In this document: piece after piece, positions 29,852-34,871 of the stretch
Position numbering within the stretch: position 1 is the stretch's first letter
Layout of the letters: every line of letters begins with the position of its first letter
DNA from: Aphelenchoides besseyi
Lineage: Eukaryota; Nematoda; Chromadorea; Rhabditida; Aphelenchoididae
Assembly: GCA_024699855.1 (NCBI GenBank)
Contig: JAMPIQ010000003.1
Coordinates: 1,798,001 to 1,862,000, forward strand
Direction of reading: 5' to 3'
DNA: 64,000 bases
Position numbers and translations under genes: made by a program
Notes under the pieces: generated by a model
Databases searched by the model: none
What the model saw: only the letters and a program-made list of their open reading frames with translations
What the model was told of the DNA's origin: nothing

Positions 29852-30200
29852 TTGTTCTCCTCAAACAATAAACTCGTATGCAACTTAACATCATAATTCT
29901 AATCGCAAATGTTTAGTTCGAATTAAATTGTTCAAATGACAAAGTCGTTCGTGTGCATGTGGTCAAAAGTGATGGAACGAATGTGATAGATCTCGAATAT
30001 CAGCACAGATGCTACAGAAGTTTATTCGGCAGAATTCGGATGCAGTTTACAAACTAATTCAACTTTTTGTTTGTAATGGTGATAAGTAGTTTCCACGCTT
30101 TGTACTTTTGAAGACAAATAAAGCCAATAAACAATGTGCAAATTTATTTGAAGAGCAGTTATATACAATTTTACATCAACATTTGTACTCATTCACATGT
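29852..30200. other. Short gap between convergent genes
   Basis: Contains two poly(A) signals (AATAAA near 29868 plus, TTTATT near 30147 for the minus-strand gene). No gene is seen. Confidence 0.4.
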
Positions 30201-31454
30201 TCATCCACTACTTGAGCTAGCCTTGTAAGCGGACCATTGTTGTTCAACAGTTTGACCGGTGATCTGCTTCCAAGTGTCGTTGTTGGCGTAGTTGCCGCTG
30301 CGGAGAATCGAATCGAACTGTTTGACGGCTCCGGAACGTTGCTTCTCGACCCAAACCAAGAAGGCGGCAGTCACTACGTATCCCTTGTCGTAGTTGTCGG
30401 AGCTTGTTGGCGGCGTCAATTTCCATCCAACATCCGCATTTGCAATTCCAAACTTGTTTCGAGCAAAATCGGCGATTCCCTCGGTCATCCATCCGGGAGC
30501 ATTCGAACCGTAGGCTTGGACGATATGCATTCCTTCGTGAGTCATGACATCAACGTCTTTTGGTTTGTTCTTGAAATAATTAGCTGAAATATTGATGGCA
30601 CCATTAGCGGCAAATGCAACTCCATTGTAATCGGGATCGATGTTCAATCCAACGCGTTTGAGAGCATTCGAATTGTACTCCTGAACAAGTTTCGGATAGA
30701 CGGTGAAGAACGTCGTGATCAATCGGTCGACGGTGTCTTTTGGCAGACCAGAAACCTTGTCATAGACAACCAACTGATAGTCGCCGGACTGATAGACGAT
30801 GGTAGTTGGTTTCGGAATGGCTTTGTAGATGGCCCATTGCTCTTCAACAGTCTTGCCGGTGATTTGTTTCCACGTGTTGTTGGTGTCGTATTTGCCACTA
30901 CGAAGAACAGAATCGAACTTTTGAACGGAGCCGGGATATTTTTTCTCCAACCAATCCAAGAAACCGCCAGTGACCAGGTAAGAACTGTCGTAGTTTTGGT
31001 TGCCTTGTGGATATTGAAGCGACCAACCGGCATCTGCATTTGCAAGTCCAAATTTGTTACGAGAAAATGCGGCGATTCCTTGGACAAACCAGTTGGGAGT
31101 GTTTCCTTTGTATGCTTGGACAACATAAGTGAGAACAAAAGTGAGAAGATCAACGTCTTTGGGATTGTTCTTGATGTAGTTGGCATCAAGAGTTATTCCA
31201 CCGTTACTGGTGCTTGTTCCTGCTGCAGGATCCAATACGAGAGTTACACGTTTTGGAGCATTCGTGTTGAAGAATTGAAGCATTTTGGGATAAGCGGTAA
31301 AATAGACGTTGATCAAACGGTCTTGAAGAGCCTTTGGAACTCCGGAGTTTTTGTCCGTATAGAGTAACTGATAGTCGCCGGATTGATAGACTAGTTGAGA
31401 GCTGCCCAAGTGGATGATTGCCGAGAATAGAAGGAATACAAGTGAGTTATTCAT
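30201..31454 (-). CDS. Tandem basic-secretory-protein (BSP)-like metallopeptidase, intronless
   Basis: The signal peptide is MNNSLVFLLFSAIIHLGSS. Two homologous domains of about 195 residues follow, each starting YQSGDYQL. Both match the BSP / 'peptidase of plants and bacteria' family, with ...NWFVQGIAAFSRNKFG or APGWMTEGIADFARNKFG, then a W and a GY.VTAAFL type helix, and NDTWKQITGQTVEQQW at the end. Domain 2 keeps the zinc motif HEGMH. Domain 1 reads VLTYV at that place and has lost both histidines and the glutamate, so it is a non-catalytic copy. The 417-codon frame has no intron, which is striking in this window where other genes have one every 100-200 bp. The family is best known from plants, bacteria and fungi, which suggests horizontal transfer followed by internal duplication. 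Likely secreted. Confidence 0.87.
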   Translation of the reverse strand: MNNSLVFLLFSAIIHLGSSQLVYQSGDYQLLYTDKNSGVPKALQDRLINVYFTAYPKMLQFFNTNAPKRVTLVLDPAAGTSTSNGGITLDANYIKNNPKDVDLLTFVLTYVVQAYKGNTPNWFVQGIAAFSRNKFGLANADAGWSLQYPQGNQNYDSSYLVTGGFLDWLEKKYPGSVQKFDSVLRSGKYDTNNTWKQITGKTVEEQWAIYKAIPKPTTIVYQSGDYQLVVYDKVSGLPKDTVDRLITTFFTVYPKLVQEYNSNALKRVGLNIDPDYNGVAFAANGAINISANYFKNKPKDVDVMTHEGMHIVQAYGSNAPGWMTEGIADFARNKFGIANADVGWKLTPPTSSDNYDKGYVVTAAFLVWVEKQRSGAVKQFDSILRSGNYANNDTWKQITGQTVEQQWSAYKASSSSG

Positions 31455-31504
31455 CTTCAAACCGATTGGAATGAAAATTGATGGTTTAATCGTAGATCGG
31501 ATAC

Positions 31505-31514
31505 TCTTAAATAC
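31505..31514 (-). promoter_or_regulatory. TATA-like element of the BSP-like gene
   Basis: The minus strand reads TATTTAAGAG about 50 bp upstream of the ATG, similar in spacing to the TATA box of the FAR-like gene. Confidence 0.4.
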
Positions 31515-32485
31515 CGAAAGTTTGAGTATTAGACGGAAGTTTCAACCTTCGGATTTGTGTGTTTAGTGAGTTCAGTCCCAAAAACGACTGTTTTTTGGTC
31601 AAACCGAACGCTTGTCATTCTAATCCTTGCGGTTCCTTGTTTAAGCACCTGCGTTCATTCCAATAATCTTGTCTACCAATTATGTTAAGCCAAAGAGAAT
31701 ACTTGGAATTGGGAAGTTCTCATGTGTTAATTTCAATTTCAATATTTTGAAATAAGTTATTGGACGTTTAATCTTTTAACACGTTGAGCTGCAATGAACA
31801 TAGTCAACTTTTATATTCTTACTGTAATTTCAAACAAACACATCGATATAATAACTGATCGTTTTTTAACTTTATTTCATCTAGATGGCTTTTTTTGGTA
31901 TTGTTTAAGATCTTGCATATACAGTTTCTCATCGGGTACTCGAGCGGATTCGTATCGCAAACGAAAGCTTGCAGGTTTTCGGGTACATTTCTTGATCTAT
32001 GTTTCAATTTTGAACGTTAGCTTGTGGTAAACCAAAAACGAGTAACTTTTTATAACCGCTGAACAATACAAACGCTTCTTGATCAAAAGCAGCAATTGAT
32101 CGCACAGTACTTTGTTCCCCATGGCGTTTTTCCGATTCCTCGCGGTAAAACACTTGACTTCAAATACGTTTATTTTGCCGCCGTCCAACTCATTCGATAG
32201 TTTTCGCTCGTTTCTGTTCGTTTGCTTTTCTGATGTGTCGTGTCATCTTACAAACAAGCAAGTGACGGCAAAATGTAGTTCTCGCAGTTGTCTCGTGGAG
32301 TCGCAGTACAACGGTTGCAATAAGTCTTTTTGTTTCTGTTCGGTCGCGCAGTGGACGCAGTGAACAATCTTAGTGGGAGAAATACTTTTATTGGTGGAAT
32401 AAACAACAAAAAACACAGAACCTAATAATGGGACGGGAGAGCGGCCGGGCCTTTTAACAAAACCCCGAGCCCACTAACAACAGAA
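31515..32485. other. Intergenic region
   Basis: About 1 kb, AT-rich. Short frames only (for example 32112-32363); none has a domain or consistent splice sites. Confidence 0.4.
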
Positions 32486-32702
32486 ATGCCAAGCGGCAGG
32501 AACAGTCGGCTTGAGACTATGAGGTCCGAACAGTTTCAGAAGTCGACAATACGAACAGCTATCTTTCAAATGACCCACCGACGATCACACGTAAGCGATC
32601 TCGATCAGAATTCTACATTAGAACAATTGTACACACGCATTGAGGCAAGTAAGTGTATTTATTTTTGTCTTAACTCAAATTTAGAACTTACAGCAAAGAC
32701 TC

Positions 32703-33112
32703 AGAACAACTCAACGTGCGATGGAACGCCGCGTACTTGGCATCAGACTCCGCGACAAAATCCGAAGCGAAAACGTCCGAGCACAAACGCAATTCAAAGA
32801 TGCGGTGGAAGACGCTCTTCAAAGAAAACTCAGATGGGCCGGACATGTGGCACGACGGAATGACAATCGATAGACGACCAAAACCACTTTTTGGCGACCA
32901 TTTGATTGCAAACGTCCACTTGGAAGACCTGCTGATAGATGGCGAAAAGACTTGGAGCGCACGATGGGAACGTCATGGCCACAAATCGCCCAAGACCGGA
33001 GCGAATGGAAACAGAGGTCGAAGTATTCGCATCAACTTATCATTTAATCCAACCTGCCTCTTATTTCACATTGTATTGATAGTTGATTGAAACGAATAAA
33101 CTTGTAACTTGT
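32703..33112 (+). mobile_element. 5'-truncated RTE-type non-LTR retrotransposon
   Basis: The 410-bp fragment carries the last part of an RTE reverse-transcriptase ORF: RTTQRAMERRVLGIRLRDKI, LRWAGHVARRND, an internal TAG, then RPLGRPADRWRKDLERT and APQIAQDRSEW-like residues. These are hallmark motifs of the C-terminus of RTE/CR1 elements. The 3' end is AT-rich (GAATAAACTTGTAACTTGT). It is flanked by an exact 11-bp target-site duplication, AGCAAAGACTC, at 32692-32702 and 33113-33123. The element is dead. Confidence 0.85.
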
Positions 33113-33445: not shown

Positions 33446-34871
33446 CAGTAGCGAGCAAAAATCTGGACACTTTTTTATGTTCAGTTAGAAGCGCATTTAG
33501 TTGCGCTGTTGTTTGCGCATTTAAAAAAAGTTGTTTAAAGAAATGTAGAGCATTGTCTTAGCTTCAATTTGACACCAAATATGCATTATTCTGAACGTTC
33601 TCTATAGAAATTGGTTTTGACAACAGCAAATCGGTTGAAAAATCTCGAGCAAAAATCTGGACACTTTTACAGACATATGAAACAAACAGAAGAAAAGTCG
33701 GTTTATTTGGCTGATTTTAATAAGTTGAGATCAATATTTTGTCGCGGATCCTTTTTGCTTGATTACGGCTGCGCACCGGCGGGGCATTGACTCGATCAAT
33801 TTGGAAAAATATAAAGTGGGGATTTGAGACCATTGATACGAAAGTTCAGCGAAAAGTTCTTCCCGTTTTTTGAACTTTTTACCACGGAGACCTTCTTGGA
33901 GTTTTGACCAAAGATTCTCAATAGGGTTGAGGTCCGGAGACTGAGCCGGCCACGGTAAAACTTTCACTTTCTTTGACCCGAGAAATTTTTTGACCGATTT
34001 GGCGGTATGTTTGGGATCATTGTCGTGTTGAAAAACCCATCCCGGAGTCCCTTTTTGTTGTGCCCAAGGTAACATGATAGTTTCCAAGATATTCTTGTAC
34101 TTGAATTGATCCATGATACCGTCAATTTGAAACAACGGACCCAACCCTTCCAGACTAAAACAGCCCCAGACCATGACATTACCACCGCCGTGTTTTACCG
34201 TACCAATAGTGTACTTCGGATCAAATCGAGTGTTGGACGGACGACGGATGTAACGAATACCATCAGAATTGCACAGATTGAACTTTGATTCGTCGCTCCA
34301 AATAACTTTCTTCCAGTCGTCGATCGTCCATTGCGCATGCTCTCGGGCAAAAGCCAGTCGTTTCTTCTTGTTGATTTCAGAGATGAACGGTTTCTTGGCA
34401 GCGATTTGACCATGTAATCCAACTTCTGATAAGCGTCTTCGAACTGTGTGAACTTGAATTTGTGAGACGCCGGCTTCTGTGGCGAATTCGGATGCCGATA
34501 ATTTCGGGTCTTTTTTGAAACACGCACAAGTTTACAGTCGGTTCTAAACGCACTGAACAATAGTAGAAGTTTAAAACTAATCCCGAAGATGTCTTACGTG
34601 GTCGTCCACGTTTTTCATCATTCACCGGCTTCTTGGCACGTACGTCAACTTTCCGGACGGCACTTTTGCCCATTGATACGCGATTTCCAATTTCTTCGAA
34701 TGTCAGCTCGTCAACATCTCGCAATTTTAGAATCAACTGCTCGATTTGTAGACTAGTTTTAACTCTTGGAGTCATTGCAGTAAATGAATAACAAAAACAA
34801 TGAAAAACAATGGGGAAACCGAAAGAAATTTCTTATAAGAAAAAAAGTGTCCAGATTTTTGCTCGCTACTG
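33446..34871. mobile_element. Tc1-like DNA transposon (TA target site)
   Basis: The 1426-bp element has terminal inverted repeats of about 31 bp beginning CAGTAGCGAGCAAAAATC. It is bounded by TA at 33444-33445 and 34872-34873. A partial internal direct copy of the TIR (GAGCAAAAATCTGGACAC) occurs at about 33647. It encodes a minus-strand transposase with a frame break. The insertion point lies in a 43-bp intron of the surrounding gene. Confidence 0.93.
33731..34775 (-). pseudogene. Tc1-family transposase, frameshifted
   Basis: The N-terminus (MTPRVKTSLQIEQLILKLRD, then EEIGNRVSMGKSAVRKV) is the paired-type helix-turn-helix. An AT-hook-like RGRPRKTSS follows. The catalytic core is present in another frame: VIWSDESKFN (first Asp), FQHDNDPKH (second Asp) and NPIENLW (Glu). 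I count 34 residues between the second Asp and the Glu, which gives the DD34E signature of Tc1. The frame breaks between the helix-turn-helix part and the core, in a small stretch around a run of six A near 34515 (CAAAAAAG on the minus strand). An intron-like stretch near 34560-34605 also sits in the linker. The copy cannot make full transposase without repair, but divergence of the TIRs is low, so the insertion is fairly recent. Confidence 0.85.

What the first reader, a model, noticed from the sequence alone, without database searches (positions are those of the whole stretch)
30201..31454. Intronless tandem BSP-like metallopeptidase: probable horizontal gene in a worm
Seen: one uninterrupted 417-codon frame with a signal peptide and two copies of the same domain. 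Known: basic secretory protein (BSP) metallopeptidases are mainly plant, bacterial and fungal. Inference: acquisition by transfer, then internal duplication. The second copy keeps HExxH (HEGMH) while the first has lost all three zinc-site residues at the same place (VLTYV), so one half may have taken on a structural or inhibitory job.
Basis: partly seen in the sequence, partly recalled or inferred. Interest (0 to 1): 0.86.

Follow-up and report, generated by a model that had tools for sequence, protein, structure and literature searches.

The report
Borrowed worm enzyme with dead twin
A plant-parasitic nematode carries an enzyme gene most like bacterial ones that has doubled in length, and one half has lost every residue of its active site yet is still conserved, so the dead half probably has a job of its own.

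Summary
The frame is real: 417 codons, window 31454 to 30201, minus strand, no intron, two full BSP (PF04450) domains. The genome is Aphelenchoides besseyi or a close sibling (COI 100% identical). The gene lies inside a 9.97-Mb contig and has 16 other places in the genome by my grouping; contamination is very unlikely. Nearest named relatives are Bacteroidota and one A. bicaudatus gene; in trees it sits among bacterial rows. The second half keeps HExxH and ExxxD. It is a maintained pseudoenzyme. One paralogue has dropped the dead half, and 66 of 181 retrieved relatives carry a siteless half-domain in the same N-terminal place. What the dead half does is unproven.

The parts
30201..31454 (-). 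Whole coding sequence of the two-domain BSP protein, 417 aa, no intron
31395..31454 (-). Hydrophobic N-terminus, residues 1-20, probable signal peptide
   Evidence: by eye; helix 3-15 in the model; nearly the same start in paralogues
30813..31394 (-). First BSP domain (D1), residues 21-214, catalytic site lost
   Evidence: 56.5 bits to PF04450
31125..31139 (-). F106-V-L-T-Y110, where HExxH should be
   Evidence: same in all 10 copies that hold the whole stretch
31068..31082 (-). Q125-G-I-A-A129, where E-G-I-A-D should be
30210..30806 (-). Second BSP domain (D2), residues 217-415, site complete
   Evidence: 80.4 bits to PF04450
30525..30539 (-). H306-E-G-M-H310, presumed zinc site of D2
   Evidence: H306, E307 and H310 invariant in the alignment of 34
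30468..30482 (-). E325-G-I-A-D329 of D2: presumed third zinc ligand and its partner
   Evidence: invariant in the alignment of 34; ligand role inferred from gluzincins (recalled)
31455..31690 (-). Conserved upstream stretch with TATA-like TATTTAAG at 31506-31513, probable promoter
   Evidence: alignment of six copies; function inferred
30143..30148 (-). AATAAA poly(A) signal, present in all six copies aligned

Best explanation
This is a secreted zinc hydrolase of the BSP family that an Aphelenchoides ancestor took up from a bacterium, probably of the Bacteroidota. In this lineage the domain was copied head to tail. The second copy (D2) remains the enzyme: a gluzincin-like fold with HExxH and a downstream ExxxD. 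The first copy (D1) lost all metal and catalytic residues before the gene spread to its present copies, but kept its fold and is still selected. Most likely D1 is a non-catalytic partner of D2: it covers or docks against D2, or binds a substrate or target surface, so that the protein works as a regulated or targeted hydrolase outside the cell. Shown: frame, domains, loss of site, selection, relationships, copies. Inferred: secretion, zinc binding and activity of D2, and the partner role of D1. Likelihoods: transfer from bacteria 0.9; D2 a metal enzyme 0.8; D1 functional but non-catalytic 0.85; D1 a regulator or docking module for D2 in particular 0.4.
Against: No activity, expression or localisation data. 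BSPs are not classed as proteases in MEROPS and barley PR17 cut neither casein nor gelatin (as told in PMC9322406), so 'peptidase' may be wrong. Among the six other copies D1 is looser than D2: pooled over 15 pairs, 59 silent and 27 replacement changes in D1 against 117 and 18 in D2, dN/dS about 0.13 and 0.04 (pairs not independent). A paralogue has lost D1 and its D2 stays constrained (dN/dS 0.2 against the window), so D1 is not needed for D2 to be kept. The pTM of 0.69 does not establish how D1 and D2 pack. No plant or fungal BSPs were in the tree. The half of the tree that holds the worm rows also holds 2 Bacillota, 1 Eremiobacteraeota and 1 Pseudomonadota row, so the donor phylum is not fixed. 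The nematode-type rows do not form one clade in the free tree (3 changes; one clade not rejected, p 0.41), so more than one transfer is possible.
Confidence: 0.6

Rival explanations
1. Host-facing mimic: the protein goes into the plant and the dead half acts as a non-catalytic look-alike of plant PR-17 (BSP), for example by competing for its partners.
For: A. besseyi is a crop parasite; plant PR-17 proteins belong to this family (PMC11327054 passages); PRp27 acts in immunity without its metal site (PMC9322406 passages); soybean NLRs carry BSP as an integrated domain implicated in virus recognition (PMC10934728 passages); plant-like mimicry proteins (thaumatin-like, cystatin-like) are proposed in Bursaphelenchus (PMC3689755 passages).
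Against: The named relatives are bacterial, not plant. Aphelenchoides also feed on fungi (recalled), so digestion is enough. No gland expression data.
Confidence: 0.15
2. Plain digestive enzyme; D1 is a passive spacer kept only for solubility or folding, with no binding role.
For: D1 keeps 15 of 25 conserved columns while losing the site; D1 is looser than D2 among recent copies.
Against: dN/dS over the whole of D1 is still 0.08-0.13, lower than I would expect for a mere spacer (judgement); the D1-less paralogue remains constrained, so D1 is not needed for folding of D2.
Confidence: 0.2
3. D1 is a decaying duplicate without function.
For: All site residues lost; broken copies and fragments are common in the genome; D1 looser than D2 among recent copies.
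Against: 33-35 silent against 13-14 replacement changes in D1 between the window and each of six copies, dN/dS 0.08-0.10; loss concentrated at the site, 5 of 5 against 5 of 20 other conserved columns.
Confidence: 0.03
4. Bacterial contamination of the assembly.
For: Intronless, bacterial-type protein.
Against: Interior of a 9.97-Mb contig with homogentisate dioxygenase and ENTH-domain frames in the same window; copies on contigs C1 and C3, most in a repeated stretch; TATA-like and AATAAA elements in all six copies aligned.
Confidence: 0.01
5. Old animal gene kept by vertical descent and lost elsewhere.
For: A second Aphelenchoides species has BSP (P0052).
Against: No other hit named as an animal in two searches (70 hits; 120 shown of 2188; most unnamed); rows are mixed with bacterial ones.
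Confidence: 0.06

Closest known systems
Bacteroidota BSP-like proteins (Chitinophaga, Mucilaginibacter, Pedobacter), PF04450
   Same: Same domain, 36-49% identical to the query among the first 20 hits, same HExxH and WxxEGIAD motifs
   Different: Of 181 retrieved relatives only P0001 has two full domains (over 100 bits each); 66 have one full domain plus an N-terminal half-domain without the site
Aphelenchoides bicaudatus 'Secretory protein' (P0052)
   Same: Nematode, single BSP domain with intact HExxH
   Different: One domain, 41% identical to D2 and 32% to D1
P0001, metagenome protein of 437 aa, host unknown
   Same: Two full BSP domains after a hydrophobic start
   Different: Both domains keep HExxH; its duplication looks separate from this one
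Plant PR-17 / PRp27
   Same: PF04450, secreted, HExxH (PMC9322406 passages)
   Different: Single domain; plant defence protein; not in my tree
M1 aminopeptidases (gluzincins)
   Same: Nearest solved folds; HExxH plus a downstream Glu in a W-x-x-E-G motif (M1 motif recalled)
   Different: 14 residues between HExxH and that Glu, not the 18 recalled for M1; only chance-level sequence matches to solved chains

Membership tests
BSP family (PF04450) | Profile score over the curated cut-off | tested here: met
   133 bits whole; D2 80.4 and D1 56.5 bits against 23.8
BSP family (PF04450) | HExxH and downstream ExxxD in D2 | tested here: met
   H306, E307, H310, E325, D329
BSP family, catalytically competent | HExxH and downstream ExxxD in D1 | tested here: not met
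   F106, V107, Y110, Q125, A129; D1 is a member by profile but not a competent one
BSP family (PF04450) | Metal-dependent peptidase activity | not testable with these tools
   In doubt for the family too: no casein or gelatin cleavage for barley PR17 (as told in PMC9322406)
Horizontally acquired gene from bacteria | Nested among bacterial sequences, embedded in the host genome, no close animal orthologues outside the clade | tested here: met
Pseudoenzyme kept by selection | Site lost, fold kept, dN/dS well below 1 | tested here: met
M1 aminopeptidase | HExxH-x18-E spacing (recalled definition) | tested here: not met
   14 residues lie between H310 and E325 (sequence)
Transposable-element cargo | Transposase or terminal repeats on the repeated unit | tested here: inconclusive

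The most novel reading that the evidence does not exclude
A dead BSP module placed in front of a live one is a recurrent design: Bacteroidota made it with a truncated half-domain, and the nematode made it again after transfer by duplicating the domain and erasing the site. The dead module would then be a built-in regulator or targeting arm of BSP enzymes, of a kind that my paper searches did not bring up.
Probability: 0.25. Interest if true: 0.75.

Novelty: new variant of a known kind. Interest (0 to 1): 0.58.

Why it matters
Gene transfer into plant-parasitic nematodes is well known, but here the after-life of a transferred gene can be followed in one genome: domain doubling, complete erasure of one active site under continued selection, spread to many copies, and a natural paralogue that has shed the dead half. 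That makes the role of a pseudoenzyme partner directly testable. I found no solved structure of a BSP by sequence, its biochemical activity is not settled (PMC9322406), and it includes plant defence proteins, so a pair made of one dead and one live domain is a useful handle on the whole family.

Tried and rejected
Considered and rejected: contamination; D1 as a decaying copy; one ancient tandem shared with P0001 (p 0.010 for the D1s and 0.017 for the D2s together; I named these groups after seeing the first tree, so the p values are somewhat flattering); M1 membership (spacing). Not settled: one or several transfers (one nematode clade not rejected, p 0.41; P0052 is a long row and its place is unsure) and the donor phylum.

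Led nowhere: NCBIfam had no model for this protein; solved structures by sequence gave only chance-level matches; Pfam gave nothing above cut-off for the 249-aa companion frame. Searches that could have shown a report of BSP in nematodes (listings, of which I opened PMC11327054, PMC9322406, PMC10934728, PMC3650047, PMC3689755 and PMC3956754 by passages) brought up none. The library lacks most subscription journals, and the Aphelenchoides transfer paper (Lai et al. 2023) was seen only as an entry in a reference list, so the gene may be in its tables. The A. besseyi transcriptome paper (PMC3956754, passages) lists 26 metallo families by MEROPS, which does not class BSP (PMC9322406).

Dropped before counts: 178 domains taken as bacterial were thinned at 62% identity to 31 for the first tree; for the second, 69 of 80 loci had a frame with both motifs (I asked for them, so rows with altered sites could not enter) and were thinned at 68% to 32. 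Six other retrieved rows were added to the second tree by hand, and long rows of the first (P0063, P0069, P0032, P0021 among them) were left out. In the first tree the nematode-type rows needed 4 changes and P0052 joined the long row P0063, which I distrust. dN/dS used 6 of the 8 other full or near-full two-domain copies; the two frameshifted ones (L016, L017) were left out, and codons with a stop in L012 and L015 were skipped. Among those six copies single pairs of D1 give up to 0.82 on 1 silent and 3 replacement changes, too few to weigh alone. Two fragments that hold only part of the lost-site stretch (in L021 and L024) are not in the 10 of 10. The relatives were picked by similarity to an alignment with HExxH, so 'all 178 with HExxH' is biased; PMC3650047 (passages) reports substituted sites in some BSPs.

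Full report
What is there. The frame runs from ATG at 31454 to TGA ending at 30201 on the minus strand, 417 codons, no intron. Pfam gives BSP (PF04450) at 1.6e-38 in two stretches, and a six-frame search of the genome scores each half above the cut-off: 80.4 bits for the second half (D2) and 56.5 for the first (D1), against 23.8. The halves are 56% identical to each other. The N-terminus is hydrophobic and looks like a signal peptide (by eye; helix in the model). There is no cysteine and there are four N-glycosylation-type triplets, one of them at residue 2 inside the presumed signal peptide.

Where it is. The mitochondrial COI of the same assembly is 100% identical to the Aphelenchoides besseyi entry, so this is the rice white-tip nematode or a cryptic sibling. 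The assembly has 47.4 Mb in 31 contigs, and the window lies at 1.80-1.86 Mb of the 9.97-Mb contig C3. Homogentisate dioxygenase and an ENTH-domain protein are encoded in the same window (2 of the 10 frames scanned had a Pfam family). Contamination is very unlikely.

The family in this genome. The search with the protein gave 23 matched stretches, a lower bound, which I group into 17 places: 5 uninterrupted two-domain genes (the window's included), 2 with one stop codon, 2 with a frameshift, 1 uninterrupted single-domain gene, 1 diverged and broken single-domain gene on the 70-kb contig C9 (46% identical), and 6 fragments. Apart from the window copy and its sibling at C3:1.297 Mb, the full copies lie, wholly or in part, in a repeated stretch of about 6-7 kb that also holds a 249-aa frame with a hydrophobic start; six long copies of the stretch are 94-99% identical, and two places show one unit followed directly by the start of another (L012, L021). 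The companion frame has 35 matched stretches of its own, many outside BSP loci, and one flank of the unit matches an old dispersed repeat (40 scored of 57 candidates). The window copy shares with these only the gene, some 235 bases upstream and a short, gapped stretch after the stop that holds AATAAA. It shares further flanking blocks at 90-91% with the C3:1.297-Mb copy.

The dead half. D2 keeps 24 and D1 keeps 15. D1 lost all five residues of the presumed metal site (H to F106, E to V107, H to Y110, E to Q125, D to A129), three residues of the conserved Y-x-x-V-A loop, and one alanine; one leucine is changed in both halves. That all five site residues are among ten lost of 25 has a chance of about 0.005 if losses fell at random (asked after seeing the pattern). 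The same lost site is in 10 of 10 copies that hold the whole stretch, so it most likely predates their spread.

Selection. Between the window gene and six other copies, D1 shows 33-35 silent and 13-14 replacement changes (dN/dS 0.08-0.10) and D2 23-27 and 8-10 (0.08-0.11) (Nei-Gojobori counts of my own script). The six comparisons share most of one branch and are not independent, and two of the six copies carry a stop. Among the six copies themselves D1 is looser than D2: pooled over 15 pairs, also not independent, 59 silent and 27 replacement changes in D1 against 117 and 18 in D2, or about 0.13 and 0.04. Both figures are far below 1: D1 is held by selection, over the longer span as tightly as D2, more recently somewhat less.

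A natural deletion. The copy at C3:1.297 Mb (L018) joins the signal peptide straight to D2; about one repeat length is missing, as expected from recombination between the two similar domain starts. Its D2 is 96% identical to the window's, with 13 silent and 10 replacement changes (dN/dS 0.2). So the live half can stand alone, though its constraint looks weaker.

Origin. The first protein search gave 70 relatives; those with an organism name are Bacteroidota, apart from A. bicaudatus P0052. The profile search found 2188, of which I saw the best 120, none named as an animal. A scan of bacterial genomes kept 80 loci, most from Chitinophaga, Mucilaginibacter and Pedobacter. In the 46-row tree D1 and D2 of the worm are sisters (100/99), the two halves of P0001 are sisters (97/94), and both sit among bacterial rows. 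The side of a starred branch (98/98) that holds the eight nematode-type rows has 12 others: five named Bacteroidota loci, two Bacillota, one Eremiobacteraeota, one Pseudomonadota and three retrieved proteins (P0002, P0011, P0018). Bacteroidota are thus the likeliest donor, not a certain one. Two separate doublings are favoured: grouping the D1s or the D2s costs 45 log units each (p 0.010 and 0.017). The first tree agrees on the worm halves (99/93) but does not join the halves of P0001. One clade of all eight nematode-type rows is not found but not rejected (p 0.41). P0001 comes from a 1,358-base metagenome contig and its host is unknown. No plant or fungal BSP was available, which is the main gap.

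Structure. The AlphaFold model from 34 sequences has pLDDT 88 and pTM 0.69, and the two halves have the same order of strands and helices. The nearest solved folds are M1 aminopeptidases, in line with a gluzincin-type site, HExxH plus a Glu in WMTEGIAD. The spacing (14 residues) differs from the 18 that I recall for M1. How the halves pack is not established.

How it may work. D2 is probably a secreted metal hydrolase. Evidence from the family is mixed: PRp27 of Nicotiana benthamiana binds a metalloprotease probe through HExxH, three site mutants lose the label but stay stable, and H122F still raised immunity; barley PR17 cut neither casein nor gelatin (PMC9322406, passages). So BSPs can act without the metal site, which makes a selected dead half believable. 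I prefer a partner role for D1: docking, covering or targeting D2. In favour, 66 of 181 retrieved relatives (P0001 and P0052 counted in the 181) carry an N-terminal half-BSP that ends at profile position 111-118, just before HExxH at 120, none with HExxH, at 13-54 bits (low scores in a small set, so the weakest may be chance). The same order, dead module first and live module second, thus seems to have arisen in bacteria and in the worm. Against it, the L018 paralogue does without D1.

Compared with what is known. Membership of PF04450 is met for both halves; catalytic competence is met by motif in D2 and not met in D1. Substituted sites in some BSPs have been noted (PMC3650047, passages), and BSP occurs as an integrated domain of soybean immune receptors (PMC10934728, passages). 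My searches of the held library brought up no report of BSP in nematodes (listings; six papers opened by passages), but the main Aphelenchoides transfer paper was not readable here. I therefore call it a new variant of a known kind.

Noticed in passing
Retrieved relatives, e.g. P0191, P0192, P0193: 66 of 181 retrieved BSP proteins carry an N-terminal BSP-like half-domain that stops just before the HExxH position; those with names are Pedobacter, Mucilaginibacter and other Bacteroidota.
   Followed up: partly
L010:315-7254 and copies on C1 and C3: A repeat of about 6-7 kb holds the BSP gene and a 249-aa frame with a hydrophobic start; two places show a unit directly followed by the start of another.
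   Followed up: partly
L010:888-1637 (+): The companion frame belongs to a larger family in this genome: 35 matched stretches on C1, C2 and C3, no Pfam family above cut-off.
   Followed up: partly
L018:4637-5293 (-): Single-domain paralogue in which the signal peptide runs straight into the live domain.
   Followed up: yes
L023:4710-5321 (-), contig C9: A diverged single-domain BSP gene, broken by a stop and a frame change, with a mariner-like frame nearby (name recalled from motif).
   Followed up: no
P0001: Metagenome protein with two full BSP domains, both with HExxH; its doubling looks separate from the worm's.
   Followed up: partly
window 33731-34531 (-) and 32674-33090 (+): Frames that look like a Tc1/mariner transposase and a non-LTR retrotransposon tail close to the gene (recognised by eye, not tested).
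   Followed up: no
L011:718-2949 (-): Gag-like frame (DUF1759) of a retrotransposon next to one copy of the repeat.
   Followed up: no
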